A stretch of 64,000 nucleotides of DNA. Origin: Jiangella sp. DSM 45060. GTDB taxonomy: Bacteria > Actinomycetota > Actinomycetes > Jiangellales > Jiangellaceae. This document shows, in pieces, positions 26,460 through 60,937 of this stretch. A program made the translations under genes and the position numbers. The stretch lies in NCBI RefSeq assembly GCF_900105175.1, contig NZ_LT629771.1, forward strand, positions 7,274,622-7,338,621. The letters run 5' to 3'. A model generated the notes under the pieces. That model made no database searches, had not been told where the DNA came from, and saw only the letters and a list, made by a program, of their open reading frames with translations. Each line of letters opens with the position of its first letter. Position 1 is the stretch's first letter.

Positions 26460-26508
26460 ACCCCGCCCGGTTGGGTGGGTCACCCAACCCTATGGGTGGG
26501 CACTGACA
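26460..26508 (+). repeat. Dispersed intergenic repeat, copy R1
   Basis: A 49-bp element beginning ACCCCGCCCGG and ending GGGCACTGACA. Its inner part can form a perfect 9-bp hairpin (GGTTGGGTG/CACCCAACC). Same family as R2-R6 in this window. It lies 86 bp beyond the stop of the sigma-factor gene. Confidence 0.75.
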
Positions 26509-26513
26509 CTCGC

Positions 26514-26562
26514 GCCGAACGCCGAACGCCGAACGCCGAACGCCGAACGCCGAACGCCCAAC
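26514..26562. repeat. Tandem heptamer array (GCCGAAC)
   Basis: Six perfect copies of GCCGAAC and one with a single change (GCCCAAC), contiguous, located between repeat R1 and the 3' end of the sigma-factor gene. A 7-bp unit is not a multiple of three and would shift any reading frame, so it is non-coding. Confidence 0.85.
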
Positions 26563-26593
26563 GCCGTTCTGTGCTCCGGCGTCCAGGCGCCGG

Positions 26594-27151
26594 TCAGCAG
26601 TCGGCGGCGGCCGTTTCCTGGTAGGCGGCCCGCAGGGCCTTGCGGGCCCGCGCCGCCAGGCTGGAGACGGCGTTGGGGGTCATCGAGAGCCGCGACCCCA
26701 GCTCGGACGGCGAATAGCGCTCGACGTCGACGAGCCAGAGGACGTGGCGCCAGCGGGCGGGCAGGGTGGCCAGGGCCGTCGCCACGCGGCTCACGTCGCC
26801 GGAGGCGTCGCCGGGGCGGCCGAGCAGCGCGTCCCACGCCGCCGGGTCCTGGACGGCGACGATGCGGCCGCGGGCGCTCGAATGCCGGTACGCCAGCCGC
26901 TTCACCGTCGACAGCACGTACCCGGGGAACGACGACCGCGGCCCGCGCCCGGCCCGGACGGCGTTCAGCACGAGGCAGAACGTCTCCTGGACCAGGTCGT
27001 CCGCCGCGTGCCGGTCGCGGACGATGTGCTGGGCCGCTCGGTGCGCCATCGGCGCGGTCTTCTCGTACAGGATCCCGAAGGCGTCGTCGTCGCCGTCGTG
27101 GGCCCGGTCCAGCAGGATCGCGAACTCCTGGTGATCCCACGCATCGGTCAT
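26594..27151 (-). CDS. RNA polymerase sigma factor, sigma-70 family (ECF-like)
   Basis: 185 residues with region 2 (AFGILYEKTAPMAHRAAQHIV, then DDLVQETFCLVLNA) and region 4 (LPARWRHVLWLVDVERYSPSELGSRLSM, then SSLAARARKALRAAY). It directs RNA polymerase to a specific promoter set. ATG 27151 was chosen because sigma homology starts soon after; the frame runs on upstream into the neighbouring gene. No anti-sigma factor is next to it; the C-terminus has no extra zinc-finger. It follows the large LuxR gene on the same strand after a gap of about 100 bp. Confidence 0.88.
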   Translation of the reverse strand: MTDAWDHQEFAILLDRAHDGDDDAFGILYEKTAPMAHRAAQHIVRDRHAADDLVQETFCLVLNAVRAGRGPRSSFPGYVLSTVKRLAYRHSSARGRIVAVQDPAAWDALLGRPGDASGDVSRVATALATLPARWRHVLWLVDVERYSPSELGSRLSMTPNAVSSLAARARKALRAAYQETAAADC

Positions 27152-27252
27152 GACGAAGAACCTGGTGGCAACGGGGGTTCCGGCGCGTCGGCACTCCCCG
27201 CAGACCTTGCTACGGGGATTCACGATGATGCGACGAACCCCCACAAAGCGGG

Positions 27253-29757
27253 TCAGGGCGAGGGTGGCAGGATCGCCAGCGCCCGGGCCACCGTGACGGC
27301 CTCGTAGCGGTCGGCCGCGCCGAGCTTGCGGTAGAGCGAGCGGGCCGTCGTCTTCAGCGTGTTGCCGGAGATGTACATCGACTTCGCGATCTCGCTGAGG
27401 GTGTCGGGCCCGTCCAGCGACAGCAGCACCTCGGTCTCGCGCTCGGACAGCGCGGGCGCGCCGCTGGTGTTGGCGCGGTGCAGCGCCGCCAGCTCGACCG
27501 CCAGCGTGCTCAGCGGCCCGGACGGTGGCAGCGGCAGCTCGCCGCCCACGATCGCGGTGCGCAGCAGCGGCGCCAACAGCAGCGGCCGCCGGGCGCCGGT
27601 GCGCTCGATCAGCGCGAACAGCTGGTGTGCGGCGCCGCCGGCGTGCACGCCGCGCTGCAGGGCGCACTCGACGTGCAGGGCGTGGACGTCGGCACGGACG
27701 GTGAGGGGGACTGTGCCGAGGTCGCCCAGCGCGGCCAGCTCGCGCCCGGCCGCCAGCGGGTCGTCGGCGGCCAGCAGGGCGCGGGCCCGGGCGACGGCGA
27801 GCAGCGCGGCGTGCCTGGCCGGCGCGACCACGGGCTCGAGCACGTCGGACGCGGCCTTCGGGTCGTCGCGGGCGAGCAGGGCGTAGGAGCGGGCGATCAT
27901 GGCCAGCAGCCGGTTCAGCGGCAGCCGATTCGTGGCGTAGTCGTCGCCGGTGAGGAGGTCGGCGTGTCCGGCGGCGGTGCGGTCGCCGGCCAGCAGCGCG
28001 AGCACCGACCACGCCAGCGCGAGCCGTCCGGCCGGCGGCACGACGTCGCGGTCGAGGCGGCGCTGGGCGCGGTGCAGCCGCTCGGCCACCCCGGCGGTGC
28101 GGCCGTGCTCGAGGTCGAGCGTGCCGCGGGTGAGGTGCACGTGGTCGGTGAACTGGTTGTCGGCCCAGCCGTGCCGCCGGGCGATCTCGGACGCCGTGCG
28201 CGACTGCCGGGCGGAGCCTGCGAGGTCGCCGCGCAGCAGCGACGTGTACGAGCGCAGCGCCTCGCTGTTGGCCTCGTGCCAAGCGATGCTGTGGTGCCGG
28301 GCCTGCGTGGCGGCCTGGCCGAGGATGGTCTCGGCGGCCTCGAGGTCGCCGGTCGCGAGCCGGTTGGCGCCGGTCTGCCAGTCGAAGTAGACGACGCGGT
28401 CGAGGTGCTCGCGCAGCTGCTCGTCAGCGGCGGCGTCGATCAGCGCGCGCCCCCTGCGCTCGACGGCGAGGGCGGCGGCGTCGTCGCCGCGAGCCCGGGC
28501 CAACACCATCTGGAAGCAGCGGATGGTCAGCAGCGTGCCGCTGAGCGTCTGCTGGTCGACCAGCCGGTCGGCCTGCGCGACGCGACGGGCGAAGGTATCG
28601 AGGTCGGGCGGCGGCGCCACCGCGGAGATGGCGGCCAGCAGCAACAGCACCGGGTCGGCCGCCACGACGTCGTCGGGCAGCGTGTTCACGGCCGGCAGCA
28701 GGTCGTCGAACTGGCCGCGCGCGACGGCCGGCTCCCAGCTGGCCCGCACCACGCTGCCGGCCGTCGCCTTGTCCAGCGCGGAGTCGACCACCAGCGGCAG
28801 CGCGTCGGTGGTGCGCCCGCGCGCGACCAACAGCCGGACGGCGCGCGTGACGAGGTCGGTGCGCCGTCCCGGCCGCTCGAGGTCCAGCTGCGCCAGCAGG
28901 CAGCGGCGCACCGGCAGCGGCAGCCGCCAGTGGCCCTCGTCGGACGCGGGCACCAGCCGCCCCGCCGTGGCCCAGCGGTCGATCAGCGTGGCCGGGTCGT
29001 CCGGCGTCGCGTGGTCCTCGAGCAGCAGCGCCAGCACGGTGGCGTCGAACCGGGGCGCCGCCGCGGCGTCGGTCAGCAGCGCGCGGTCGGACGGCGGGAG
29101 GTCGCCGAGCACCTCGATGCGGACGAAGCGGTCGATGAGGTCGTGCAGCGAGCGCTCGGACAGCGTGGCGTCAGGCCGCTGCGTGCGCAGCCACGCGACC
29201 ACCAGCGCCGGCCAGCCGTCCGTCGCCTGCTCCAGCTCGGCGACGTCGTCGGCGCTCAGGGCGACCCGGAGCCGGGTGGCCAGCTGCTGCACCTCGGCGC
29301 CGTCGAACAGCAGGTCGGGCAGGCCGACGAGGTGGATGGTGCCGTCGAGCAGGCGGTCGGCGGTGACCCAGACGGGGAGCGTGCGGGTGCTCAGCATCAG
29401 CCGGGTGTCGTGGTCGCGCACCGCACGCAGCGCGGCGCGCACGCCGTCGCCGTCGGGATCGGAGGTGTCGTCGAGCAGGATCACCGGCGGGTCGGACGCG
29501 TCGTCGGCCACCGCATGGGCCAGGATGTCGCCGACGGCCGCACCGAGGTCGCCGGCGTCAGGATCGACCCGCGCCACCCGCCCGGCGCCGAGCCTGCGGG
29601 CGACGTCGTCGAGCAGCAGCGACTTGCCCAGCCCGGGCGGGCCCTGGACGACGACGATGGGTGCGGCGTCGCGCCTGGCCAGCGGCTCGCTGAGGCGTGG
29701 CCGGGACAGGACGGGCCGGGGACCCGCCCGCCGGCGGTCGCGCTCGCCACCCTGCAT
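27253..29757 (-). CDS. Large LuxR-family (MalT/LAL-like) ATPase regulator
   Basis: 834 residues. The N-terminal AAA/STAND ATPase has Walker A GPPGLGKS at about 40 and a VILLDDTSD Walker B. The long helical middle is TPR-like (many Ala/Leu/Arg helices). The C-terminal LuxR/GerE helix-turn-helix reads LSEREtEVLL, then EIAKSMYISGNTLKTTARSLYRKLG. Such proteins activate catabolic or secondary-metabolism operons on binding an inducer and ATP. ATG 29757 follows a GAG-containing leader. It is divergent from a second protein of the same class at 29955; the shared 197-bp gap must hold both promoters. Confidence 0.88.
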   Translation of the reverse strand: MQGGERDRRRAGPRPVLSRPRLSEPLARRDAAPIVVVQGPPGLGKSLLLDDVARRLGAGRVARVDPDAGDLGAAVGDILAHAVADDASDPPVILLDDTSDPDGDGVRAALRAVRDHDTRLMLSTRTLPVWVTADRLLDGTIHLVGLPDLLFDGAEVQQLATRLRVALSADDVAELEQATDGWPALVVAWLRTQRPDATLSERSLHDLIDRFVRIEVLGDLPPSDRALLTDAAAAPRFDATVLALLLEDHATPDDPATLIDRWATAGRLVPASDEGHWRLPLPVRRCLLAQLDLERPGRRTDLVTRAVRLLVARGRTTDALPLVVDSALDKATAGSVVRASWEPAVARGQFDDLLPAVNTLPDDVVAADPVLLLLAAISAVAPPPDLDTFARRVAQADRLVDQQTLSGTLLTIRCFQMVLARARGDDAAALAVERRGRALIDAAADEQLREHLDRVVYFDWQTGANRLATGDLEAAETILGQAATQARHHSIAWHEANSEALRSYTSLLRGDLAGSARQSRTASEIARRHGWADNQFTDHVHLTRGTLDLEHGRTAGVAERLHRAQRRLDRDVVPPAGRLALAWSVLALLAGDRTAAGHADLLTGDDYATNRLPLNRLLAMIARSYALLARDDPKAASDVLEPVVAPARHAALLAVARARALLAADDPLAAGRELAALGDLGTVPLTVRADVHALHVECALQRGVHAGGAAHQLFALIERTGARRPLLLAPLLRTAIVGGELPLPPSGPLSTLAVELAALHRANTSGAPALSERETEVLLSLDGPDTLSEIAKSMYISGNTLKTTARSLYRKLGAADRYEAVTVARALAILPPSP

Positions 29758-29954
29758 CGCTCAGCCTCCCCCTGGCCTCCACCCGAAGACGATCTTAGTC
29801 TCACCCCCTCCCTCACCCCACGTTCCACCCCCACTCACCCGTCAGCAGTGTCGGTTTCTGCCGTCATGGGAGGGCGCCGGACCGCGATGCTTGGGGATGA
29901 AGATCGCGATGGGGGGCCCGGCGATGGGGAGTGGTCGCAGGGTGAGGGGAACGG

Positions 29955-32720
29955 GTGGAGAAGGAAGTACGCGACGCGTTGATCGGTCGCGACAGTGAAC
30001 AGACCAGGATCCGGGAAGTCCTGCTGAGGTTGGCGGCCGGCGAGGGGGGCGCGGTCGTCGTGGAGGGCGCCGACGGCGTCGGTAAGAGCGCGTTGGTGCG
30101 CGCCGTGTCCGACGACGCGCGCGCCGGGCGGCTGACCGGCCTCGACGAGGTGACGGTGTCGGCGGTGGTGGCCGCCGACTCCGAGCGCGGCTGGCCGTTC
30201 TCGGGACTGCATCTCGTGCTGTCCGCTGTCGTGGGCTCACTGGAGCCCGAGCAGCAGCGCCAGGCGGCGCGGCTGGTCGACGACCTCACCACGCGGCTGG
30301 AGCAGACGGCGTCGGCGTACGAGCTGGCCGTCCAGGTGCAGCCGCTGGTCAGCCGGGTCCGGCGGCCGCTTGTCATCGTCATCGACGACGCGCACCGGCT
30401 CGACCCCCAGTCGCTGGAGGTGCTGGGCTTCGTCGCCCGCCGGGTCGGCACGTCGCCGCTGGTGTTCCTGGTGGTCGTCGACACCGCCGAGCGGGTGCCC
30501 CCGTTACTGGGCCTGCCGCTGATCCGGCTCGGCGAGCTGCCGCCCACCGACGCGACCGAGCTGGTCCGCCGGGCGGCCGGGTCTCACACCCTGCACAGCG
30601 TCGCCGCGCGCATCGCCGCCCGTGTCGGCGGCAACCCGCGGGCGCTGCTCGACGTCGTCGGCCGGGTGCCCGACGTGCAGCTGCTCGGCCAGGTCGAGCT
30701 GGACCGGCATCTGCCGCACTCGCCGGTGCTGCAGGCGCAGCAGCTGCCCGAGCTCGGCTCGCTCGACGACGACCAGCGGTTCGCGCTGCTGGTCGCCACC
30801 GGCAGCGAGGACCAGCGGATGGCGCCGGTGCTGAACGCGCTCGGCTCGCCGGACGCGCCGCACGTCGCCTGGCTGTTCGCCGAGCACCTGAACCGGTCCG
30901 ATGGCACGTTCACGCTGCAGCGCCCGGCCGTCCGCTCGATCATCTGGCAGGCCGCCACCATGGCCGAGCGCGACGCCGCCCACCAAGCGCTGGCGGCCGC
31001 GTACGCCGACTCCGACCCGGGCCGGCAGCTCTGGCACCTGGCGCAGACGCGGCACGACCACGACGACGAACTGGCGACGCGGCTGGAGCGGGTGGCCGCC
31101 GAGTCGCTGGTCCGCGGCGAGGTGGAGCGGTCGCTGGCGTTCGCCCGCGAGGCGGTTCGGCTGACGTCCAAGCCGGGCGAGCGGGTCGTGCGGCTGCTGC
31201 AGGCCGGCCGGTTCGCCGTCCTCGCCGGGCGGCTGGACGAGGCCGTGCACATCGCCCGCGAGCGGTTCCGCCTCGACACCACGCCCGAGCAGCGGGCCGA
31301 CTTCGCGCTGCTGGAGGTGCGCGCCCGCAACCTGCTCGACGGCGAGGTCGCCACCGGCCTCGTCAGCCGACACGTTGAGGAGGTCGCGCCGATCGACCCG
31401 ACCCGCGCGGCCGCGCTCGACCTCGCCGCCGCGCACGGGCTGGCCGGGCGCATGGAGCAGGCCGAGGCGGCCCGGTTCCTCGCGCTGGCCGAGCGGTTCG
31501 AGGACGACTTCGACCCCACCACCCGGGCCGCGCACCTGCGCACGGCCGCGCTGCTGGCGTCGGTCAGCGGCGAGCTGGACCGCGCGGTCGAACTGGTGGA
31601 GTCCGACAGCGGCGGCGCGGCCGACCTGTTCGGCGAGGCCGAGACGAACCTGCTGCACGCGACGGTGCTGGTGCGGGCCGAGCGGTACGGGCAGGCGCGG
31701 CGGCTGCTGCGCGCCGTCACCAGCGGGCAGTTCGGCGACTCGCCGCTGCTGCTGCGGGCGGCGCTGGCCGGGCTGGTCCAGCTGGAGCTGCGGGCCGGCC
31801 GGCTGCGCGAGGCCGCCGAGGCGGCGGCCGCCTGGGACCGCGTCGACGCCGACAGCGCCCACCGCGCGCTGGTGCCCGCGTACATGGTGCGGGTCAACGC
31901 GTACCTGGGCGAGGACGAGGCCGCCTGGGACCGCCGCCGGCAGTCGATCGAGGGGTCGCGGCGCCACGGCGACTCGTGGGCGACCGCCGTCATGCAGGCC
32001 GAGACCGGCGCGTTCCTGCTGCTGCTCGGCCGGTTCGACGAGGCGATGTCGGTGCTCGACCACGCCCGGCGGCACGCGCTGGAGCACGCCGACCCGTCCA
32101 TCCTCGCCGTGGAGCCCGACTACATCGAGGCGTGCGTGCGCAGCGGCGAGCTGGGCCGGGCCCGGGCGGCGCTGGCCGAGTTCGAGCTGCGGGCCGGACG
32201 GGTCCCGACGGCGTGGGCGCGGCACACCGTCGCCCGCTGCCGGGCGCTGGCCAGCGAGGGGGAGGAGGCGCTGACGCTGTTCCGCGAGGCGGTCGAGACC
32301 GCCACCGACGCCGTGTCGCCGGTCGAGCAGGCGCGCACGCTGCTCTGCTTCGGCGAGCGGCTGCGCCGGCTCGGCCGCCGCACCGACGCGCGGTCCTGGC
32401 TGCAGCGCACCGTCGTGCTGGCCCAGGAGAGCGGTGCCATCGCACTGGCCGGACGGGCCGGGCAGGAGCTGGGCGCGTCCGGCGGCCCGGTGCCGCCGAC
32501 CACCCGGCTGGCCGACCTCACCGACGCCGAGCAGCGCATCGCCACGCTGGTCGCCAGTGGACGGCGCAACCGGGAGATCGCGGCCGAGCTGTTCGTCTCC
32601 GTCCGCACCGTCGAGGCGCACCTGGGCCGCATCTTCCGTAAGCTCGGCATCCGCTCGCGCACCGAGCTGACCGGCATCGTCGTCGCCGGAATCGACGACG
32701 ATGGCGGCGGACAGGCGTGA
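29955..32720 (+). CDS. Large LuxR-family (LAL-like) ATPase regulator
   Basis: 921 residues. The N-terminal ATPase has LIGRDSEQTRI at the very start, Walker A GADGVGKSALV and Walker B LVIVIDDAHRLD, the classic LAL pattern. The middle is an arginine/alanine-rich helical repeat region, and the C-terminus has a LuxR helix-turn-helix (LTDAEQRIATLVASG, then EIAAELFVSVRTVEAHLGRIFRKLGI). GTG 29955 is preceded by a GGGGAA-type site. Divergent from the MalT-like gene. No obvious target operon lies downstream; the gene is closed by a shared terminator. Confidence 0.9.
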   Translation: MEKEVRDALIGRDSEQTRIREVLLRLAAGEGGAVVVEGADGVGKSALVRAVSDDARAGRLTGLDEVTVSAVVAADSERGWPFSGLHLVLSAVVGSLEPEQQRQAARLVDDLTTRLEQTASAYELAVQVQPLVSRVRRPLVIVIDDAHRLDPQSLEVLGFVARRVGTSPLVFLVVVDTAERVPPLLGLPLIRLGELPPTDATELVRRAAGSHTLHSVAARIAARVGGNPRALLDVVGRVPDVQLLGQVELDRHLPHSPVLQAQQLPELGSLDDDQRFALLVATGSEDQRMAPVLNALGSPDAPHVAWLFAEHLNRSDGTFTLQRPAVRSIIWQAATMAERDAAHQALAAAYADSDPGRQLWHLAQTRHDHDDELATRLERVAAESLVRGEVERSLAFAREAVRLTSKPGERVVRLLQAGRFAVLAGRLDEAVHIARERFRLDTTPEQRADFALLEVRARNLLDGEVATGLVSRHVEEVAPIDPTRAAALDLAAAHGLAGRMEQAEAARFLALAERFEDDFDPTTRAAHLRTAALLASVSGELDRAVELVESDSGGAADLFGEAETNLLHATVLVRAERYGQARRLLRAVTSGQFGDSPLLLRAALAGLVQLELRAGRLREAAEAAAAWDRVDADSAHRALVPAYMVRVNAYLGEDEAAWDRRRQSIEGSRRHGDSWATAVMQAETGAFLLLLGRFDEAMSVLDHARRHALEHADPSILAVEPDYIEACVRSGELGRARAALAEFELRAGRVPTAWARHTVARCRALASEGEEALTLFREAVETATDAVSPVEQARTLLCFGERLRRLGRRTDARSWLQRTVVLAQESGAIALAGRAGQELGASGGPVPPTTRLADLTDAEQRIATLVASGRRNREIAAELFVSVRTVEAHLGRIFRKLGIRSRTELTGIVVAGIDDDGGGQA

Positions 32721-32832
32721 GCCGGAAAATTTCTGCGATCGCCGCGTGCTGATCCGGCCCGCCGGTGCCTCCTCTCTAGTGACGGGTGGGAGGTGCAGGG
32801 CCGGCCGGCACATCCGTCCACGGGGGAATCGG

Positions 32833-32874
32833 CACTCCGCTCCCCGCGAAGCCCCCCTTCTCGGGAGCGGAGTG
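32833..32874. terminator. Bidirectional hairpin terminator
   Basis: Perfect 12-bp stem (CACTCCGCTCCC pairing with GGGAGCGGAGTG) with an 18-nt loop, placed between the convergent LuxR gene (stop 32720) and the GAF-ANTAR gene (stop 32886). It can serve both strands. Confidence 0.75.
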
Positions 32875-32885
32875 GCCGTCCCCGA

Positions 32886-33623
32886 TCAGCGTCCGCCGGT
32901 GCCGTCCGGCGCGAGGTCGACGGCGCGGGCGAGCACCTGGTGCGCGATCTCGCCCAGCGTGAGGCCGGCCGCGTAGGCGCGGGCGCGCAGCAGCGCCAGC
33001 GCGTCGTCGGGCGGCAGGCCGAGCCGCGCGACCAGGAACCCGGTGGCCTGGTGCACCTCGGCGCGGGCGGCCCAGACACCGGTGGGCGTGCCGCCCGGGC
33101 AGGCGAGGTCCACCTCGAGGTCGCGGCCGAGGTCGAGGTCGCGCAGCAGCGTCACGCCGACGGCCGCGGCCAGGTGCGCCGTCAGCTCCTCCTCCGGCGC
33201 CGGGTGGCCGTGGCCCGCCCGGTACGCCGTCAGCACGCCCAGCAGCTCCGCGCCGGCCGGGACCGGGACCGCGACGACGGTGAGCGGGCCGGTCTCGCGC
33301 AGCGCCGCCTCGGCGAACAGCGGCCACGTCACCTCCGCCCCGGCGGCGCCGATGCGGCCGACGACCGGGCGGCCGGACCGGTACGCGTCGACGCTGGGCC
33401 CCTCGCCGAGGACGTCCTGCAGATTCTCGACCCGGCCGATGACGTCGTCGGTGACGCAGACGGCCAGCCGCTGCGGCAGCGTGTAGGCGAGCACGAGGGC
33501 GACGCCGTCGGCACCGAGCAGCGACCGGCAGGTCTCGCCGAGCCGCTCCGCCGGCGGAGCACCGGAACCGGCGTCGGCGACCGCCTCAGCCAGTCGCGAC
33601 GTCACCTCGGCTGGTGTGGTCAA
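32886..33623 (-). CDS. GAF and ANTAR domain protein (putative RNA-binding antiterminator)
   Basis: 245 residues. The first half is a GAF sensor domain (ENLQDVLGEGPSVDAYRSG, LFAEAALRETGPLTVVAVPV). The C-terminal ~55 residues form an ANTAR domain (EVHQATGFLVARLGLPPDDALALLRARAYAAGLTLGEIA), which binds paired RNA hairpins to prevent termination. TTG 33623 is chosen because a GGGAG site lies 6 bases upstream; GTG 33605 is an alternative. Targets are unknown; the architecture is typical of stress regulators in actinobacteria. Confidence 0.85.
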   Translation of the reverse strand: MTTPAEVTSRLAEAVADAGSGAPPAERLGETCRSLLGADGVALVLAYTLPQRLAVCVTDDVIGRVENLQDVLGEGPSVDAYRSGRPVVGRIGAAGAEVTWPLFAEAALRETGPLTVVAVPVPAGAELLGVLTAYRAGHGHPAPEEELTAHLAAAVGVTLLRDLDLGRDLEVDLACPGGTPTGVWAARAEVHQATGFLVARLGLPPDDALALLRARAYAAGLTLGEIAHQVLARAVDLAPDGTGGR

Positions 33624-33805
33624 GGGGGACTCCCGGCGGCTGCCGGCGCAGGCGGCCGGTCGCCGCTGCACACGCTACTGGACCGACGCACCGCTCCTAC
33701 GGGCGTCGCCGGCGCGCGACGGCCGCCGTCCATCGGTGCTGACCTGCGGGTTTCCGAGTCGGCCGGTCCCTCGCCACCCAGACCGTACCTCTTCCTGCCC
33801 GCGGG

Positions 33806-34387: not shown

Positions 34388-34413
34388 GACGCTCGACCCT
34401 ACCGCCTCGCCGC

Positions 34414-35502: not shown

Positions 35503-35523
35503 CGGGTCTCCTCGTGCGGTGGG

Positions 35524-35814: not shown

Positions 35815-35891
35815 TCCGTGCTGCTACCCGGCCTGCCCGGCGGCAAACGAGGTCGGGATGCTTCGGCCGCGTCGGGGTACGGGCCGAGCAC

Positions 35892-35900: not shown

Positions 35901-35904
35901 CCGG

Positions 35905-37113: not shown

Positions 37114-37183
37114 GTGGTAGGTGGACCCCTCCCGGCCCGGGTGGGGCCCACCCTACGGGCGGGCACCGACAACCTCGCCGCGC
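37114..37183 (+). repeat. Dispersed intergenic repeat, copy R2
   Basis: 70-bp element with core ACCCCTCCCGG to GGGCACCGACA (37125-37171). It is identical to R3 at 37507 except for one base (C to T in CCACCCTACG). Same family as R1, R4, R5 and R6. Confidence 0.85.
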
Positions 37184-37334
37184 GTCGGCGCGCCCGGCCG
37201 GACCGTCCTCGCGTGTTGGGGCGTCTGGTCGCGCCGCCCGTCGCCTGCCGCGTGTCGGGGTGTCTGGTCGCGTCGACCGCTGCGCCTCGGCGCCGCCCAT
37301 GCGTCGCGGGTCGGCCAAGTGCCGCTGCCGCCCC

Positions 37335-37481
37335 CGTACCGCACCGACGACGACCGCGGGGCGCTACCGCCCACGTACCGCACCGACGACGACCGCGGGG
37401 CGCTACCGCCCACGTACCGCACCGACGACGACCGCGGGGCGCTGCCGCCCACGTACCGCGCCGGCGACGACCGCGGACCGC
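37335..37481. repeat. 39-bp minisatellite (about 3.7 copies)
   Basis: Three contiguous copies of a 39-bp unit beginning CGTACCGCACCG, almost identical to each other (37335-37373, 37374-37412, 37413-37451), and a decayed fourth (37452-37481). The unit is a multiple of three and would encode a 13-residue repeat in one frame. The copies are contiguous, with no spacers. Confidence 0.85.
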
Positions 37482-37506
37482 TGACCGTCACGTTCGCGTG
37501 TTGGCC

Positions 37507-37576
37507 GTGGTAGGTGGACCCCTCCCGGCCCGGGTGGGGCCCACCTTACGGGCGGGCACCGACAACCTCGCCGCGC
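37507..37576 (+). repeat. Dispersed intergenic repeat, copy R3
   Basis: 70-bp direct repeat of R2, 393 bp downstream, with one mismatch. The pair brackets the 39-bp minisatellite. Confidence 0.85.
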
Positions 37577-51989: not shown

Positions 51990-52118
51990 GCGGCTACCCG
52001 GGCGGCCTCGGCCTTCTCGGCCGTCCGCCGGGTAGCCGCCGGGCGGCCTCGGCCATCCGCCCGGGTAGCCGCCGGGCGGCTTCGGCCGCCTCGGCCGTCC
52101 GCCCGCGCCGAGCGAGTC

Positions 52119-52166
52119 TGTCGGTGCCCGCCCGTAGGGTGGGCACCCTCCCTTGAGGGGCGGGCC
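52119..52166 (-). repeat. Dispersed intergenic repeat, copy R4 (inverted)
   Basis: On the minus strand it reads GGCCCGCCCC at the start, then CCACCCTACGGGCGGGCACC and GACA, matching the R2/R3 core. It lies in the gap between the convergent DegT (stop 51989) and TfoX-like (stop 52179) genes. Just before it, 51996-52110 carries a degenerate GGGTAGCCGCCGGGCGGC duplication. Confidence 0.75.
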
Positions 52167-52178
52167 ATACCTACCTCG

Positions 52179-52526: not shown

Positions 52527-52635
52527 GCCCACAGACTGCCACCGGAGCGGCGCGGCGGTCGCAGGGCGCTGATCCTGGAAAGGTCTTCCAGGCGATGCCG
52601 CCCAGCATGAGCGGTTTCAGAGGATGACGGACGCA

Positions 52636-52664
52636 TTGACATGAAACGTCGTTCTCTGTTGCAT
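52636..52664 (+). promoter_or_regulatory. Candidate sigma-70-type promoter
   Basis: TTGACA (52636-52641), a perfect -35 match, is followed 17 bases later by TTGCAT, a poor -10 candidate. It lies 28 bp before the start of the secreted beta-propeller gene at 52692, in an unusually AT-rich patch for this DNA. Confidence 0.4.
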
Positions 52665-52691
52665 GGCGGGCACCCCGACCGAGGAGGTTCG

Positions 52692-54617: not shown

Positions 54618-54622
54618 GCCTG

Positions 54623-54662
54623 GGGCGCGTCGTGGGCGCGGCCGGCCGCCCACGACGCGCCC
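54623..54662 (+). terminator. Perfect 16-bp hairpin terminator
   Basis: GGGCGCGTCGTGGGCG pairs perfectly with the downstream CGCCCACGACGCGCCC; the 8-nt loop is itself palindromic. It lies 5 bp after the beta-propeller stop and 14 bp before the next gene, separating two same-strand genes. Confidence 0.85.
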
Positions 54663-54676
54663 GATAGGTTCGGGTC

Positions 54677-55216
54677 ATGAGCAGGGTGTTGTGGCACGTG
54701 ACGATGTCGGTCGACGGTTTCATCGCCGGGCCGGAGCACGGCATGGACTGGGTGTTCGAGCAGCCGGCGCCGCCGGAGGCCTCGTCCGACGTCGCGCCGC
54801 GGGTCGGCGCCATCCTCAGCGGCCGGCACACCTACGACGTCGGGCAACGCGACGTCGGCAAGGGCAGCGGCGAGGCGTTCGAGGGCGCGTGGTCCGGCCC
54901 CGAGTTCGTGCTGACGACGCACCCGCCGGCCGAGCCGCTGCCGGCCGGGTCGCCGACGTTCCTGTCCGGCGACATCGGTGCCGCCGTGGCGACGGCGCGG
55001 GCCGCGGCCGGCGACGGCGACCTGCTGGTGCTCGGCGCCGACGTCGTGCTCCAGTGCGTCGAGGCCGGGCTGGTCGACGAACTGCTGGTGCACATCGCGC
55101 CGCTGCTCCTGGGCGACGGCGTCCGGCTCTACGGCGGGCCGGGCCGCGGCCGCGTCGACCTCGAACTCGTCGAGGCCACCGGGACGGTGCTGCGCTACCG
55201 GGTGCTCGGGACCTGA
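54677..55216 (+). CDS. Dihydrofolate reductase-like (RibD C-terminal domain) protein
   Basis: 179 residues of the RibD C-terminal/DHFR-like fold: MSVDGFIAGPEHGMDWVF at the N-terminus, GRHTYDVG, and the C-terminal VLGADVVLQCVEAGLVDELLVHIAPLLLGDG block typical of actinobacterial 'dihydrofolate reductase family' proteins. True folate reduction is not established for these. The stop overlaps the convergent AraC-family gene by 22 bp. Confidence 0.88.
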   Translation: MSRVLWHVTMSVDGFIAGPEHGMDWVFEQPAPPEASSDVAPRVGAILSGRHTYDVGQRDVGKGSGEAFEGAWSGPEFVLTTHPPAEPLPAGSPTFLSGDIGAAVATARAAAGDGDLLVLGADVVLQCVEAGLVDELLVHIAPLLLGDGVRLYGGPGRGRVDLELVEATGTVLRYRVLGT

Positions 55217-56175
55217 CCAGCTGGTAGGCCGCCGCGCTTGGCGGCGCCGGGCGGGAGGCCGACGACGCGCTTGAAGGCGCGGGCGAAGGCGGCCTCGGAG
55301 CGGTAGCCGAGCCGCCGCGCCAGCTGCGCCGCCGTGGCCTGCTCGGAGCGCAGCGCGTCGAGCGCGAGGTTCATCCGCCACGTCGTCAGGTACTGCATGA
55401 CCGGCTCGCCGACCACCTTGGTGAACCGGTCGGCGAACGCCGAGCGCGACATCGCCAGCTCGGCCGCGAGGCCGGCCACCGACCAGTCGCGGTCGGGCTG
55501 CTTGTGGATGAGTGAGATGGCCCGGCCGATCTGCTCGTCGTGCAGCGCGCCGAGCCAGCCGGTGCGGGCGGCGGGGTCGGTCTCGAGCCACGCCCGGATG
55601 GCCTGGATCACCAGGATGTCGCCGAGCCGGGTGATGACCTCCTCGCCGCCGGGCCGCAGGTGCTGCGCCTCGGCCGACATCAGCCGCAGCGTGCTGTGCA
55701 TCCACTCCTGCTGCGGTGACCCGCCGACGTCGACGTGGATGGTCTCGGGCAGCGCCTCGACGAGCTTGCGCGCGGCCGGGTGGTCGAACCGGACGGCGCC
55801 GCAGATCAGCGTGGTCGGGTCGCCGCCACCGCCGTGGCGGATGAGCTCGTACCGCTCGGTGGCGGTGACGCGTTCGAGGTCCATGACGTTCGGCGCGGGC
55901 GCGCCGGGCGCGCCGAGGATCAGGTGCCCGCGCCCGTGCGGGACCAGCGCCAGCTCGCCCGGGAGCAGTGCCCGCGGCGGCCCGTCCTCGGTCTGCAGCC
56001 AGGCCGGTCCCGACGTCACGATGTGGAACCAGATGTGGCCCGGCATCGCCGGCATCGTCATGCCCCAGGGGGCGCTCAGTTCGGAACGGCAGTAGAACGC
56101 GCCGTTCATGCGCATCTGGTGCAGCGCCTCGCCGATCGGGTCGGTGGGCGCCCAGAGGTCCGGCGTCGTCGTCAT
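55195..56175 (-). CDS. AraC-family regulator with cupin-like sensor
   Basis: 326 residues. The N-terminal AraC-binding-like cupin (GMTMPAMPGHIWFHIVTSGPAWLQTED, LVPHGRGHLI) is followed by a C-terminal double helix-turn-helix (SLIHKQPDRDWSVAGLAAELAMSRSAFADRFTKVVG, then LARRLGYRSEAAFARAFKRVVG). ATG 56175 is preferred; ATG 56205 is an in-frame alternative. It lies 143 bp from and divergent to an NmrA-like gene, which with the DUF1772 gene it probably controls. Confidence 0.9.
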   Translation of the reverse strand: MTTTPDLWAPTDPIGEALHQMRMNGAFYCRSELSAPWGMTMPAMPGHIWFHIVTSGPAWLQTEDGPPRALLPGELALVPHGRGHLILGAPGAPAPNVMDLERVTATERYELIRHGGGGDPTTLICGAVRFDHPAARKLVEALPETIHVDVGGSPQQEWMHSTLRLMSAEAQHLRPGGEEVITRLGDILVIQAIRAWLETDPAARTGWLGALHDEQIGRAISLIHKQPDRDWSVAGLAAELAMSRSAFADRFTKVVGEPVMQYLTTWRMNLALDALRSEQATAAQLARRLGYRSEAAFARAFKRVVGLPPGAAKRGGLPAGQVPSTR

Positions 56176-56318
56176 GACCCGAGTATCCACCTCATGCTCA
56201 GACATCCAGGGCGACTGGACGAACGAGCATGAACGGCGGCTGTGCAGTCATAGATCCACCGGGTTAGCGCTGCTTGACTGGACGACAAGCAAGCACACAC
56301 CGACTCAGGGAGCACATC

Positions 56319-57140
56319 ATGAACGCCACCACCCTCGTCCTCGGCGGCACCGGCAAGACCGGCCGCCGGGTCGTCGAGCGCCTGACGGCTCGCGGCGCGG
56401 ACTTCCGCGTCGGGTCGCGGTCGGCGCAGATCCCGTTCGACTGGACCGACCGCTCGACCTGGCCGGCCGCGCTGGCCGGTGTCGGCCGGGTCTACATCGC
56501 GTATTACCCCGACATCGCCATCCCCGGCTCCGCCGGCCTGGTCGGGGAGCTGGCCGAGGTCGCCCGCGAGGCCGGCGTCCAGCGGCTGGTGCTGCTGTCC
56601 GGGCGTGGCGAGGAGGAGGCCGAGGCCACCGAGAAGGTCGTGCAGGCGTCCGGGCTGGAGTGGACGATCGTCCGCTGCTCCTGGTTCAACCAGAACTTCG
56701 ACGAGGGCTACCTGCTCGACCCGATCCTCGCCGGCGAGGTCGCGCTGCCGGCCGGCGACGTGCCGGAGCCGTTCGTCGACGCCGACGACATCGCCGACGT
56801 CGCCGTGGCGGCGCTGACGGAGGACGGCCACGCCGGCGAGGTGTACGAGCTGACCGGGCCGCGGATGCTGACGTTCGCCGAAGCGGTCGCCGAGATCGCG
56901 AAGGCCAGCGGGCGCGAGATCGCCTTCATCCCGCTGGCGCACGAGGACTACCTCGCGGCACTGGCGGACGCGGACCTGCCGCCCGAGGTCGCCTGGCTGG
57001 TCGGCTACCTGTTCGGCGAGGTCCTCGACGGCCGCAACGCGCACCTGAGCGACGGGGTCCAGCGGGCCCTGGGCCGCACGCCGAAGGACTTCACCGACTA
57101 CGCCCGCGACGCCGCCGCCCGCGGCGCGTGGACCGCCTGA
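56319..57140 (+). CDS. NAD(P)-binding NmrA-like atypical SDR protein
   Basis: 273 residues. Rossmann start TTLVLGGTGKTGRRVVERL, mid-sequence LVLLSGRGEEEAEATEKVVQASGLEWTIVRCSWFNQNF and DADDIADVAVAAL. Typical of NmrA/azoreductase-like redox sensors or reductases. ATG 56319 has a GGGAG site. Cotranscribed with the DUF1772 gene 34 bp downstream. Confidence 0.88.
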   Translation: MNATTLVLGGTGKTGRRVVERLTARGADFRVGSRSAQIPFDWTDRSTWPAALAGVGRVYIAYYPDIAIPGSAGLVGELAEVAREAGVQRLVLLSGRGEEEAEATEKVVQASGLEWTIVRCSWFNQNFDEGYLLDPILAGEVALPAGDVPEPFVDADDIADVAVAALTEDGHAGEVYELTGPRMLTFAEAVAEIAKASGREIAFIPLAHEDYLAALADADLPPEVAWLVGYLFGEVLDGRNAHLSDGVQRALGRTPKDFTDYARDAAARGAWTA

Positions 57141-57174
57141 CCACACCCCACCGAGAAGCAAAGGAGACCCGGCC

Positions 57175-57660
57175 ATGTCGGACCGCATCGAGACCACCGC
57201 CACCGTCATCGCGATCACCGGCAGTGCCCTCATGGCCGGGATGTGGTTCTTCTGCTCCGTCGCGCTGATGCCGGCGCTGGCGAACCGCCCCGTTCCCGAA
57301 GCGATCGCCGCGATGCGGGAGATCAACGTCGTCATCCTCAACCCGCTGTTCGGGCTGGCCTTCGGCGGGACCGCGCTGGTCTCGCTCGGCCTGACGGTCG
57401 CGACGTTCCTCCGGCTGGACCGGCCGGCGTCCGGGCTGCTGCTGGCCGCCGCGCTCGTCATCCTCGTCGGGACCTTCGTCGTGACGATGGCGTTCAACGT
57501 CCCGCTCAACGACCAGCTCGCCGCCGTCGACCCGGGCAGCGCCGCCGCGGCCGACGTCTGGGAGCGCTACCTGTCCCGCTGGACCGCCTGGAACCACGTA
57601 AGGCTGGTCAGCTCGACGGCGTCGGTGGTGCTGTTCGCGACCTACCTCATCCGGCGCTGA
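57175..57660 (+). CDS. DUF1772 (anthrone oxygenase-like) membrane protein
   Basis: 161 residues with four hydrophobic helices and the family features MWFFCSVALMPAL, VPLNDQLAAVD and WNHVRLVSSTASVVLFATYL. DUF1772 members include fungal anthrone oxygenase-related proteins; bacterial function is unclear, but the pairing with an NmrA-like protein and an AraC regulator recurs in actinobacteria. The stop overlaps the convergent epimerase gene by 14 bp. Confidence 0.82.
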   Translation: MSDRIETTATVIAITGSALMAGMWFFCSVALMPALANRPVPEAIAAMREINVVILNPLFGLAFGGTALVSLGLTVATFLRLDRPASGLLLAAALVILVGTFVVTMAFNVPLNDQLAAVDPGSAAAADVWERYLSRWTAWNHVRLVSSTASVVLFATYLIRR

Positions 57661-58615
57661 GCTCGACGTCGAGCTCGCCATGGCCCGCCAGCCACTCGAC
57701 CGCCTCGCGGACCGCCTCCTCCGGCGCGTACCGCGGGGCGTAGCCGAGTGTGCGGCGGGCCTTGTCGATGGACGCGAACTGGCTGCGCGACAGGTGGTCC
57801 CAGCTCTGCTCCGCGTACTCGGGCGTCGTGCCGGCGCGGAACTCGTCCCAGCCGACGAACTCCAGCGCCGGCTCGCGGCCGAACCACGACGCCGCGTAGC
57901 CGGCGAACCCGCGGACGGTCAGCGCCGACGGCGCCGTGACGTGGAACGCCTGGCCGGCCGCGGCGTCGCGTCGCTCGATCGCCAGCTGGAAGCCCTGCGC
58001 GACGTCGTCGGCGTGGACGTGGTGCAGCAGCTCGGCCCCGATGCCGGGGACGGCCAGCGGCGCGCCGGACGCGAGCGCCGTCCACACCGCCGGGTCGAGG
58101 TTGCCCAGCGGGTTGATCGGGTGCCAGCCCGGCCCGCTGATGTGGCCCGGGTGCAGCGACGTCGTCACCAGCCCGCCGCGTGCGGTCTCGTCCAGCAGCA
58201 GCCGCGCGATGGCCGCCTTCTGCACGCCGTACTCCCCGAACGGGACGGTCTCGCTGTCCTCGTGCAGCGGGATCGACCGGCTCGGCCCGTGCATCCAGAT
58301 CGACCCGCAGTGCACGAGGTGCGCCACCCGCCCGCGCAGCCCGTCGACCAGCTGGCGGGCCGACTCCTCGGTGAAGCACACCATGTCGACGACGACCTCC
58401 GGCGCGAGGTCCGCGACCCGGCCGGCGAACGTCCCGGCGCGGTCCTCGGCCTCGCGGTCGACCGTCAGCTGCTCGACCTGCGCCCACGCCGGATGCTCGG
58501 CGTACGGCTGCCGCGTGCCGCGGCTGAGGTTGACGACCTGGTGCCCGGCGGCGACCAGCCGCGGGATCAGGTATGTGCCGACATGACCGGTCCCGCCGAC
58601 GACGACGATGCGCAT
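57647..58615 (-). CDS. NAD-dependent epimerase/dehydratase family protein
   Basis: 322 residues of the extended SDR fold: GGTGHVGTYLIPRLVAAGHQV at the N-terminus, the YGVQKAA motif (Tyr and Lys of the active site), and a C-terminal segment IDKARRTLGYAPRYAPEEAVREAVEWL typical of sugar epimerases acting on nucleotide or free sugar derivatives. ATG 58615 starts exactly at the Rossmann motif. Divergent from the DapA-like gene by 31 bp. Confidence 0.9.
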   Translation of the reverse strand: MRIVVVGGTGHVGTYLIPRLVAAGHQVVNLSRGTRQPYAEHPAWAQVEQLTVDREAEDRAGTFAGRVADLAPEVVVDMVCFTEESARQLVDGLRGRVAHLVHCGSIWMHGPSRSIPLHEDSETVPFGEYGVQKAAIARLLLDETARGGLVTTSLHPGHISGPGWHPINPLGNLDPAVWTALASGAPLAVPGIGAELLHHVHADDVAQGFQLAIERRDAAAGQAFHVTAPSALTVRGFAGYAASWFGREPALEFVGWDEFRAGTTPEYAEQSWDHLSRSQFASIDKARRTLGYAPRYAPEEAVREAVEWLAGHGELDVELSAG

Positions 58616-58646
58616 GCGCCCATCATGGCCGTCTAGGGTCGTCGTC

Positions 58647-59576
58647 ATGAAGGCGCTGCGGGCGGTCGATGTCAGGGGTGTGTGGGGGACGGTGCTGCTG
58701 CCGCTCGGCGGCCGCGGCGCCGTCGACTGGGCCCGGCTGGCCGCGCAGGTCGACACGCTGGTCGCCAGCGGCGTCGACGGCGTCTACGCGCACGGCACGG
58801 CGGGCGAGTTCCACGCCATCGACGAGGCCGAGTTCGACCACGTCAACGAGGTGGTGGCGACGCGGTGCGAAGCGGCCGGGCTGCCGTTCCAGCTGGGCGG
58901 CTCGCACCCGGCGACGCCCGTCATGCTGGACCGGGTGCGCCGGGCGGCCGCGCTGGAGCCGGGCGCCGTCCAGGTGATCCTGCCCGACTGGGTGCCGCTG
59001 AACGACGACGAGGTGGTGCGCTTCCTGGCCGGCGCGGCCGAGGCGGCGGGGCCCGTGCCGCTGGTGCTCTACAACCCGCCGCACGCGAAGACGCCGGTCG
59101 GGCCGGAGCTGCTGGCCCGCGCGGCCGCCGCGACGCCGTCGCTCATCGGTGTCAAGATGGCCGGCGGCGACGACGGCTGGTACGCCGCCATGACGCCCCT
59201 GGCAGCCGATCTCTCCGTCTTCGTGCCCGGCCACCTGCTGGCGACGGGCCTCGCCCACGGCGCGCACGGCAGCTACTCCAACGTCGCCGCGATGTCGCCG
59301 CGCGGCGCCGTCGCCTGGTACCGCATGATGACGACGGACCCGCGGGGCGCGCTGGACGTCGAGGCGCGCATCGCCGAGTTCTTCCGCCGCCACATCGCGC
59401 CGCTGCAGGCCGCCGGGCTGTCCAATCCGGCGCTCGACAAGTTCCTCGCCACCGTCGGCGGCTGGGCCGACATCGGCACGACGCTGCGCTGGCCCGCGTC
59501 GTCGGCGCCGGACGACGCCGTCGGGCCGGCCCGTGCCGACGCGAACCGGCTGCTCCCGGAGCTGTTCCCGGCCTGA
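58647..59576 (+). CDS. Dihydrodipicolinate synthase/N-acetylneuraminate lyase family aldolase
   Basis: 309 residues, class I aldolase TIM barrel. It shows VYAHGTAGEF (GTxGE-like loop), YNPPHAKTP (Tyr of the active site) and the Schiff-base lysine in LIGVKMAGGD, plus VPGHLLATGLAHGAHGSYSN. Members cleave or make keto sugar acids; biosynthetic DapA is less likely because the gene is beside an epimerase in a sugar context. ATG 58647 was chosen over the earlier in-frame start because it fits the family length. Confidence 0.88.
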   Translation: MKALRAVDVRGVWGTVLLPLGGRGAVDWARLAAQVDTLVASGVDGVYAHGTAGEFHAIDEAEFDHVNEVVATRCEAAGLPFQLGGSHPATPVMLDRVRRAAALEPGAVQVILPDWVPLNDDEVVRFLAGAAEAAGPVPLVLYNPPHAKTPVGPELLARAAAATPSLIGVKMAGGDDGWYAAMTPLAADLSVFVPGHLLATGLAHGAHGSYSNVAAMSPRGAVAWYRMMTTDPRGALDVEARIAEFFRRHIAPLQAAGLSNPALDKFLATVGGWADIGTTLRWPASSAPDDAVGPARADANRLLPELFPA

Positions 59577-59598
59577 TCGCAGCGGCTACCGTGGCCGG

Positions 59599-60726
59599 AT
59601 GCTGGAAGCCGCGGGCGTCACCGCCGTCGAGGAGCAGGTGTACGGCGCCCTCGTCGACTCGCCCGCCGACACCGCGGCCGCCATCGCGACCCGGCTCGGG
59701 CTGTCGTTCGACGAGACCACGGCGGTGCTCGCGTCGCTCGAGGCGAAGGGGCTGATGAGCCGCACCGCCGACCGCACGCCGCGGTTCCTGGCGACGCCGC
59801 CGGACATCGCGATCGAGCCGCTGATCCTGCAACGGCAGGCGGAGCTGCAGGAGACTCGCCGGGCGGTCGACGAGTTGCTGCGCCGCTACCGTGCCAGCCG
59901 CCGTCCCCGCGAGGCCGCCGAACTCGTCGAGGTCGTCGTCGGGCGGCCCGCTGTCGCGCAGCGGTTCCAGCAGCTGCAGCGGCGGGCCGAGCGGGAGGTG
60001 CTGGTGCTGGTCAAGCCGCCGTTCGCGATCCCGCACGAGGCCAACGACACCGAGCTGGACCTCCTCGCCCGCGGCGTCACCGCCCGCGCCGTCTACGAAC
60101 GGTCGGTCCTCGAGACCGACGGCGGCTCCGCGGCCGTCGCCCGCTACGTCGCCGCCGGCGAGCAGGCCCGCGTCGTCGACGAGCTGCCGGTGAAGTTCGC
60201 GCTGATCGACGGGTCGGAGGCGTTCGTGCCGCTGACCCCGGACGACCCCGAGACCGAGCCGACGTTCATGGTCGTGCACCGCAGCGGGCTGCTGGCGGCG
60301 CTGATCGCGCTGTTCGAGTCGCTGTGGGACCGCGCGTTCGACCTGTCCGCGCTGACGGCCCGCGCGTCCGGCCGCCCGCCGCGACTCGCCCCTGCCGACG
60401 CGCAACTGGTGTCGCTGCTGCTGGCCGGGCTGACGGACAAAGCGATCGCGGGCCAGCTGGGGCTGAGCATCCGGACGGTGCACCGGCGGATCAGCGCCCT
60501 GCTCGACCGCGCCCAGGTGTCGACCCGCCTCCAGCTCGGCTGGCACGCCGCCCAGCACGGCTGGCTGGACGGCTACGGCCCGGCTCATGCGGCTGGCGCT
60601 GCTGGCCCGGTCGGCGCTGTTGGACCGGCTGGTTCTGCGGGTCCGGCTGGACCGGCTGGCTCTGCGGGTCCGGTTGGCTCTGCTGGATCGGCTGGGCCGG
60701 CTGGCTCTCGCGGCGGCGCTGACTAG
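59599..60726 (+). CDS. TrmB/LuxR-like regulator with collagen-like tail (paralogue of 7739-8713)
   Basis: 375 residues, paralogous to the regulator at 7739 throughout: N-terminal winged helix (VEEQVYGALVDSPADT, LEAKGLMSR), AIEPLILQRQ versus AIESLVHQRQ, GRPAVAQRFQQLQ versus GATAVAQRFEELQ, LPVKFALIDGSEAFVPLTPD and the C-terminal LuxR-type HTH (LVSLLLAGLTDKAIAGQLGLSIRTVHRRI). The last ~45 residues are a Gly-x-x tail (GPAGSAGPVGSAG-type) with no counterpart in the other copy. ATG 59599 fits best. Convergent with, and 331 bp from, a secreted subtilase gene. Confidence 0.82.
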   Translation: MLEAAGVTAVEEQVYGALVDSPADTAAAIATRLGLSFDETTAVLASLEAKGLMSRTADRTPRFLATPPDIAIEPLILQRQAELQETRRAVDELLRRYRASRRPREAAELVEVVVGRPAVAQRFQQLQRRAEREVLVLVKPPFAIPHEANDTELDLLARGVTARAVYERSVLETDGGSAAVARYVAAGEQARVVDELPVKFALIDGSEAFVPLTPDDPETEPTFMVVHRSGLLAALIALFESLWDRAFDLSALTARASGRPPRLAPADAQLVSLLLAGLTDKAIAGQLGLSIRTVHRRISALLDRAQVSTRLQLGWHAAQHGWLDGYGPAHAAGAAGPVGAVGPAGSAGPAGPAGSAGPVGSAGSAGPAGSRGGAD

Positions 60727-60736
60727 CCGGGCTCAC

Positions 60737-60784
60737 ACCCCGCCCGGCCGGGTGGGCCACCGACTCTACGCGCGGCCACTGACA
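60737..60784 (+). repeat. Dispersed intergenic repeat, copy R5
   Basis: 48-bp element starting ACCCCGCCCGGCCGGGTGGG and ending CCACTGACA. Directly repeated as R6 153 bp downstream with no difference in the 48-bp core, and clearly related to R1. Confidence 0.8.
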
Positions 60785-60889
60785 GCGTCGGCGGGAACGG
60801 GCGGTGGGCTGCGAGGTGCGCTGATGGGCGGTAGCTGCGAGTGGGGACGGCCGCTGCGGTGCAGCCGGGCCGAGCTGCGCCGGGTGCAG

Positions 60890-60937
60890 ACCCCGCCCGG
60901 CCGGGTGGGCCACCGACTCTACGCGCGGCCACTGACA
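60890..60937 (+). repeat. Dispersed intergenic repeat, copy R6
   Basis: Identical in its 48-bp core to R5. The left flank (GTGCAG) is also like the left flank of R1 (GGGCAG), so the element may extend slightly beyond the core. Confidence 0.8.

What the first reader, a model, noticed from the sequence alone, without database searches (positions are those of the whole stretch)
26460..60937. Dispersed repeat family confined to tail-to-tail intergenic gaps
Six copies (R1 26460, R2 37125, R3 37518, R4 52119 inverted, R5 60737, R6 60890; core 47-49 bp) share ACCCCGCCCGG, then GGGTGGG, then CTACGGGYGGGCAC-like and CACYGACA. All four host gaps lie between convergent genes; the only other convergent gap over 150 bp (32721-32885) has an ordinary hairpin instead. 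No copy is in a divergent or tandem gap. The element can fold (e.g. GGTTGGGTG/CACCCAACC in R1), suggesting a REP-like or bidirectional terminator or chromosome-structuring element.
Basis: seen in the sequence. Interest (0 to 1): 0.75.

Follow-up and report, generated by a model that had tools for sequence, protein, structure and literature searches.

The report
Scattered DNA-damage promoters with hairpins
A short sequence repeated well over a hundred times, mostly between genes, in a soil bacterium (Jiangella) looks like a copied-and-pasted DNA-damage-response promoter fused to a hairpin, which would give this genus a large, unstudied set of damage-triggered transcription starts.

Summary
The six copies are real and belong to a family with 226 near matches in this 7.49-Mb genome (genus Jiangella, inferred; 9 for the reversed control). 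They are not confined to convergent gaps. Outside the window, in a one-third sample, 16 of 96 convergent, 24 of 289 tandem and 8 of 209 divergent gaps of at least 100 bp carry one: about three-fold convergent enrichment that fades in long gaps.

On the other strand each window copy is TGTCRGTG-N8-TANNNT, the published RecA-NDp consensus bound by PafBC, the actinobacterial DNA-damage activator. A CCCNCCC-loop-GGGNGGG hairpin begins 3-7 nt after the -10. PafBC is encoded, and the motif precedes recA and radA. In a promoter-blind scan 71 of 81 such hairpins have the motif upstream.

The unit occurs in 9 of 12 genomes of the genus and 0 of 284 others of the class. Where two species share a copy, orientation agrees (11 of 11) while the spacer around it is rebuilt.

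Best reading: a promoter-bearing dispersed repeat (Correia-like in kind) of PafBC promoters starting short 5'-hairpin RNAs. Expression is untested.

The parts
26487..26508 (-). R1: RecA-NDp/PafBC-type promoter TGTCAGTG-CCCACCCA-TAGGGT
   Evidence: consensus as quoted
26462..26479 (-). R1: hairpin CCCACCC-AACC-GGGCGGG, 7 nt after the -10 (predicted RNA 5' end)
37150..37171 (-). R2: promoter TGTCGGTG-CCCGCCCG-TAGGGT
37126..37146 (-). R2: hairpin CCCCACCC-GGGCC-GGGAGGGG
37543..37564 (-). R3: promoter TGTCGGTG-CCCGCCCG-TAAGGT; R2 and R3 look like a local duplication
   Evidence: (D7, 89% over 97 nt)
37519..37539 (-). R3: hairpin, as R2
52119..52140 (+).
52146..52164 (+). R4: hairpin CCCTCCC-TTGA-GGGGCGGG
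60763..60784 (-). R5: promoter with changed spacer TGTCAGTG-GCCGCGCG-TAGAGT
60739..60756 (-). R5: hairpin CCCACCC-GGCC-GGGCGGG
60916..60937 (-). R6: promoter, identical to R5; second copy 153 bp away
60892..60909 (-). R6: hairpin, identical to R5

Best explanation
The repeats are a genus-specific (Jiangella) family of dispersed elements of about 57 bp. Each is a consensus RecA-NDp (PafBC-dependent) promoter plus a hairpin that begins at the predicted transcription start. Shown by sequence: promoter match, narrow promoter-hairpin spacing, conservation pattern, dispersal, genus restriction; local duplication by eye. Inferred: when ssDNA from damage activates PafBC, it redirects sigma-A RNA polymerase to these sites; transcription starts 6-7 nt after the -10 and yields RNAs with a 5'-terminal hairpin. 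In convergent gaps the RNA must run antisense into a neighbouring 3' end. The elements spread as promoter-bearing, Correia-like repeats by an unknown copying route. They are commonest in convergent gaps, and in tandem gaps lie nearer 3' ends, because insertion between a gene and its own promoter is selected against.
For: The consensus 'tTGTCRgtg - 8 nt - TannnT' is printed in PMC5656591 (passages read). Six of six window copies fit TGTCRGTG-N8-TANNNT exactly. The genome encodes Pup ligase (TIGR03686 over cut-off), next to a WYL+WCX protein in pafB position and a protein with HTH_PafC+WYL. The same motif lies before recA and, 6-7 nt before an ATG, at radA (TIGR00416 over cut-off), an epoxide hydrolase and two glyoxalase-like genes. 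Promoter-blind scan: 71 of 81 distinct CCCNCCC-N3-6-GGGNGGG hairpins have the motif with at most 1 mismatch, 2-9 nt upstream. Per match (284, both strands) mismatches are 59 with 0, 12 with 1, none with 2-3, then 4-8. 300 nt further upstream none is below 3. Among 31 distinct upstream sequences of hairpins (own and fetched loci, filtered to at most 3 mismatches, so partly circular), 24-31 keep the motif base at defined positions (30 a purine at R), against 18-28 at spacer positions. In copies picked by overall similarity, 19 of 25 with a changed spacer or -10 core keep all 11 defined positions (some are local duplicates). The unit is present in 9 of 296 genomes, all of the window's genus (161 copies here); the reversed pattern is 0 in all. 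Bare motif: 198 here; the highest of 234 genomes outside the genus is 72. In orthologous gaps with a copy in both species, orientation agrees in 11 of 11 rows (9 distinct own gaps).
Against: No expression data. 13 of 74 distinct own copies have lost at least one defined position (several TGTCRGCG), so not all are kept intact; and changed-spacer copies (19 of 25 intact) are no more intact than all copies (61 of 74). Some defined positions (T at 6, 24 of 31) vary as much as the spacer. Presence is not fully stable: 5 of 16 orthologous-gap rows with a copy in either species have it in one only, and 9 of 28 relatives' copies with assigned flanks had no own copy found nearby (at least L184 and L214 of these were found on better mapping). 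In tandem gaps the promoter points with the genes in 13 and against them in 10 of 23, so it is not kept to drive neighbours. The predicted 40-nt RNAs are no more stable than shuffles (z -0.71 to +0.77, 5 of 5), and arm pairs are nearly all C-G, so there is no covariation to prove an RNA hairpin.
Confidence: 0.62

Rival explanations
1. Selfish or inert REP/MITE-like repeat: the promoter was captured once and rides along, or serves only the spread of the repeat; no cellular role.
For: Copy number runs from 0 to 161 across 12 genomes of the genus; near-identical cores sit in unrelated flanks (by eye); copies in one gap look alike; orientation near random in tandem gaps (13 to 10); depletion from divergent gaps.
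Against: A passive passenger should decay evenly, yet most motif positions vary less than the spacer (partly circular filter). Gap and orientation persist between species in 11 of 16 rows. No Y1 transposase and no flanking inverted repeats above re-paired controls.
Confidence: 0.22
2. PafBC/RNA-polymerase decoy array: many promoter sites buffer or delay the damage response, and the transcripts are by-products.
For: The genome carries 198 exact motifs, against 29-34 in the three genomes of the genus without the unit; PafBC formed a complex only with polymerase bound at its promoter (PMC11804915, passages read).
Against: Does not explain the hairpin placed at the start site. Three near-relatives do without the unit.
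Confidence: 0.08
3. Bidirectional terminator or 3'-end barrier.
For: G+C-rich hairpin; convergent enrichment; 17 of 23 tandem-gap copies lie nearer the upstream gene's 3' end.
Against: 80 of 96 convergent gaps of at least 100 bp outside the window lack it; no U-tract by eye; a conserved block lies outside the hairpin and matches a promoter; 8 divergent gaps carry it.
Confidence: 0.06
4. Chance resemblance: the tail only looks like RecA-NDp and binds another factor or an unknown transposase.
For: Motif recognition was not measured here; most copies share one spacer, CCCGCCCG (107 of 127 distinct motif-selected cores).
Against: Eleven defined positions match, and 19 of 25 similarity-selected copies with a changed spacer or core keep them; the same motif precedes recA and radA in this genome.
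Confidence: 0.05

Closest known systems
RecA-NDp / PafBC-dependent promoters (Gamulin 2004 as cited in PMC5656591; PMC6789036, PMC11804915; passages read)
   Same: Consensus tTGTCRgtg-8 nt-TannnT, PafBC in the host, same motif at recA and radA
   Different: Known sites are described upstream of damage-inducible genes; these are mostly not directly before genes, in over a hundred dispersed near-copies, each with a hairpin at the predicted start site
Correia repeat enclosed elements of Neisseria (PMC2649163 and PMC5039591, listing and start of abstract only)
   Same: Small dispersed repeat that can create promoters and is linked with non-coding RNA; genus restriction and copy-number variation are recalled
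   Different: Different sequence and architecture; the promoter type here is that of the DNA-damage activator; no terminal inverted repeats found here
REP/REPIN elements with RAYT transposase (PMC3116915, listing only; traits recalled)
   Same: Short hairpin, intergenic, clustered similar copies, depleted before genes
   Different: No Y1 transposase match in the genome; the conserved tail matches a promoter
Intrinsic (bidirectional) terminators (recalled)
   Same: G+C-rich hairpin, often between convergent genes
   Different: No U-tract, promoter attached, absent from most convergent gaps

Membership tests
RecA-NDp / PafBC promoter | TGTCRGTG-N8-TANNNT | tested here: met
   6 of 6 window copies; 61 of 74 distinct own copies intact at all defined positions
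RecA-NDp / PafBC promoter | PafB and PafC in the host; same motif at known regulon genes | tested here: met
   pafA, WYL+WCX protein and HTH_PafC protein in one locus; recA and radA. NCBIfam named neither PafB nor PafC (0 families each)
RecA-NDp / PafBC promoter | PafBC-dependent, damage-induced transcription | not testable with these tools
   no expression data
REP/REPIN (RAYT-linked) | RAYT / Y1 transposase in the genome | tested here: not met
   PF01797: 0 matches; rings in 5 of 14 control genomes
REP/REPIN (RAYT-linked) | Short intergenic palindrome in many copies | tested here: met
MITE / Correia-type element | Terminal inverted repeats and target duplication | tested here: inconclusive
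   Flank complementarity equals re-paired controls (10.64 vs 10.78, sd 0.15); flanks too diverged to read an empty site
Correia-type element | Carries promoter sequence | tested here: met
   (sequence only)
Intrinsic terminator | Hairpin followed by U-tract | tested here: not met
   By eye, no T-run after the hairpin in the listed copies
Rfam RNA family | Match at gathering score | tested here: not met
   0 matches in the window

The most novel reading that the evidence does not exclude
Jiangella has turned its DNA-damage promoter into a self-spreading repeat: on damage, about 160 PafBC promoters scattered through the spacers fire at once, making hairpin-capped non-coding, largely antisense RNAs that alter neighbouring 3' ends genome-wide, while damage-time transcription and repair at these sites drive the rapid rebuilding of the spacers around them.
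Probability: 0.25. Interest if true: 0.85.

Novelty: new variant of a known kind. Interest (0 to 1): 0.6.

Why it matters
Promoter-bearing repeats are known, but I found no report of one whose promoter belongs to the PafBC damage response. In the held library, PafBC with 'intergenic repeat' gave 0 papers; PafBC with 'small RNA' and 'antisense' gave 1 paper, seen as a listing only; a six-term search on palindromic repeats, promoters and DNA damage in Actinobacteria gave 12 papers, none on this by title or start of abstract; repeat terms with Jiangella gave 81 papers holding two of five terms, and none of the 10 listed mentions Jiangella. If active, one regulator would control far more start sites than its gene regulon. 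It offers a natural test of how PafBC shares polymerase among many promoters, and of how a regulatory site becomes a genomic repeat.

Tried and rejected
Convergent-only placement: rejected genome-wide. RAYT-type REP: no PF01797. DUF222/13E12 link (recalled association with this promoter type): 7 domain matches at about 4 loci; the loci of three were scanned and no TGTCRGTG was printed for them. Composite transposon: the gene between two own copies (3864877, 3866555) is a Mutator-family transposase (PF00872) in a gap where the relative has one copy. Replication-strand bias: none among the 100 listed exact copies of 226 places, 84 clusters. Terminal inverted repeats in the flanks: none above re-paired controls. 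RNA stability beyond composition: not significant. DNA folds of four window copies: z -2.59, -1.31, -3.64, +0.23, mixed. Clean empty sites: not obtained. A G-quadruplex reading of the G-tracts was considered, not tested. Streptomyces locus L195 has a RecA-NDp match 6 nt before an ATG opening a 294-codon ORF, without the hairpin.

Limits: my gene caller is home-made (codon log-odds, no Prodigal), fuses some same-strand genes and has no RNA genes. The 2.46-Mb sample is 33% of the genome. The tandem count of 24 of 289 adds 6 fused gaps that carry elements but no fused gaps without them, which overstates the tandem share and so works against convergent enrichment. In one search I chose 20 locus-element pairs by hand, mainly, and 19 were scored. 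Named relatives were picked by an exact 23-mer, which favours intact promoters there. The 127 cores are selected for the exact motif, so they show spacer and loop variety, not motif conservation. Copies and gaps are treated as independent although some are local duplicates.

Full report
OBSERVATION. The 19-nt core (up to 3 mismatches) matches six times in the window, against 0.15 expected. The window is positions 7,274,622-7,338,621 of a one-contig genome of 7,485,957 bases, which holds 226 matches with up to 3 mismatches (117 and 109 by strand) against 9 for the reversed pattern. An exact 23-mer search of named genomes gave 101 stretches; of the 80 rows listed, 79 are Jiangella and one Streptomyces.

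WHERE COPIES LIE. I pulled six evenly spaced 400-kb blocks, added the window, and called genes with a codon log-odds script. Copies with at most 2 mismatches: 31 convergent, 29 tandem, 9 divergent, 8 in called ORFs (77 in all). With a stricter definition (motif plus hairpin) there are 67 elements, 10 of them in 6 called ORFs. Coding potential is low at these: over +-30 codons it is below zero for 4 and between +2.4 and +10.5 for 6 of the 10, where most other 50-codon windows of these ORFs score 15-30; this fits same-strand genes fused by the caller. Counting those 6 as tandem gaps, gaps of at least 100 bp outside the window carry an element in 16 of 96 convergent, 24 of 289 tandem and 8 of 209 divergent cases: convergent against the rest odds ratio 2.9, p=0.002; convergent against tandem 2.2, p=0.03; divergent against the rest 0.34, p=0.004. 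Without that correction the convergent odds ratio is 3.6 for gaps of at least 100 bp and 1.65 (p=0.21) for gaps of at least 300 bp, so gap length accounts for part of it. In tandem gaps 17 of 23 elements are nearer the upstream gene's 3' end; the promoter is sense in 13 and antisense in 10. Orientation is even on both halves of the chromosome (84 clusters of the 100 listed exact copies).

WHAT IT IS. PMC5656591 prints the consensus upstream of LexA-independent damage genes as 'tTGTCRgtg - 8 nt - TannnT' (passages read). PMC6789036 and PMC8223512 tie this RecA-NDp motif to PafBC (passages). PMC11804915 reports that ssDNA-bound PafBC redirects sigma-A polymerase to PafBC-dependent promoters (passages). 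In 2.464 Mb there are 74 exact motif matches; by eye 6 lie outside the repeats, and 4 of those 6 have an ATG 6-7 nt after the -10: radA, an epoxide hydrolase and two glyoxalase-like genes. recA has TTGTCAGTG-N8-TAACGT. Next to pafA lie a WYL+WCX protein (pafB by position) and an HTH_PafC+WYL protein.

ANATOMY. Across 127 distinct cores (own genome plus fetched loci, selected for the exact motif) the hairpin arm starts 3-7 nt after the -10 (94 of 127 at 5-6), loops vary widely, and 14 spacers occur, one of them in 107. The predicted start therefore falls at the base of the hairpin (inference from the leaderless genes). Promoter-blind: of 81 distinct hairpin places, 71 have the motif with at most 1 mismatch 2-9 nt upstream. 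Of the 10 others, by my reading 7 are a second arm match inside an element, 1 is an element cut by an insertion, and 2 are unrelated. By overall similarity to eight seed copies (at least 38 of 58), the own sample has 74 distinct copies: 61 intact at all defined positions, 67 with intact arms; of 25 with a changed spacer or -10 core, 19 intact. Thirteen copies have lost a position.

DISTRIBUTION. Motif plus hairpin: 161 copies here; 93, 54, 44, 21, 21, 19, 16, 1, 0, 0, 0 in the other 11 genomes of the genus; 0 in 284 other genomes of the class; reversed control 0 in all 296. The bare motif counts 198 here and at most 72 in the 234 genomes outside the genus of a 246-genome draw, with reversed controls of 0-3 per strand. 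The three genomes of the genus without the unit still have 29-34 motifs. The looser 19-nt core gives 14-148 matches in the other 11 genomes of the genus; outside it counts are mostly near the reversed control, though up to 29 against 13 and 24 against 6.

EVOLUTION. Copies with identical cores sit in unrelated flanks (by eye), so the unit disperses. Neighbouring copies in one gap look like one subfamily (by eye), so they seem to duplicate locally. Of 151 orthologous gaps in relatives' loci, 16 rows have an element in either species: 11 in both (9 distinct own gaps), all in the same orientation, 4 only in own, 1 only in the relative. By a cruder mapping, 19 of 28 relatives' copies had an own copy nearby. 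Gap identity, one row per own gap, is 0.48 (median, n=10, element in either) against 0.80 for element-free gaps of at least 150 bp (n=21), p=0.009; length changes over 1.5-fold in 7 of 10 against 4 of 21, p=0.013. In 19 hand-chosen pairs the element averages 0.90 identity and flanks 0.64/0.58 against 0.56 (sd 0.13) for unrelated flanks; in about half of the pairs the hairpin type differs by eye. Relatives' copies were selected by an exact 23-mer, so the 0.90 is inflated; the hairpin figure of 0.83 is less so.

MECHANISM. Shown: sequence match to the promoter class, PafBC in the host, narrow promoter-hairpin geometry, dispersal, genus restriction. Inferred: PafBC-dependent firing after damage, and RNAs with a sealed 5' end that run antisense in convergent gaps. 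Unknown: how the unit is copied, and whether the RNA, the promoter occupancy or neither matters to the cell. RNA folding alone is not informative.

COMPARISON. [quoted passage not shown] It meets the sequence definition of a RecA-NDp promoter, fails the RAYT criterion of REP, and fails the U-tract criterion of a terminator. I call it a new variant of promoter-bearing dispersed repeats.

Noticed in passing
G000:C1:3798449-3799492 (L093, block 3750001): An insertion sequence (DDE transposase ORF 3798500-3799423, minus strand; PF01609) splits one copy inside the -10 at CTAG; its ends next to the split read ATGAGTGAGTCC / GGACTCACTCAT. Relatives L211 and L246 carry an uninterrupted copy in that gap.
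   Followed up: partly
G000:C1:3864725-3866681: A Mutator-family transposase gene (PF00872) lies between two own elements; J. anatolica (L221) has a 279-bp gap with one element there.
   Followed up: partly
L294:1393-1468: An ATG 8 nt after the recA RecA-NDp motif is in frame with the called GTG start, without a stop between, so RecA may be translated from a leaderless, N-terminally longer form.
   Followed up: partly
window 37310-37470 and 26515-26560: Short tandem arrays (39-bp units between R2 and R3; GCCGAAC-like units beside R1): element-bearing gaps look like sites of minisatellite growth.
   Followed up: no
G000:C1:4143060-4143674: A phage-integrase-family gene starts 114 nt downstream of a solitary RecA-NDp match, a possible damage-inducible mobile element.
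   Followed up: no
L195:5731-5767: Streptomyces sp. SID9727 has a RecA-NDp match with the commonest element spacer, 6 nt before an ATG that opens a 294-codon ORF, and without the hairpin.
   Followed up: partly
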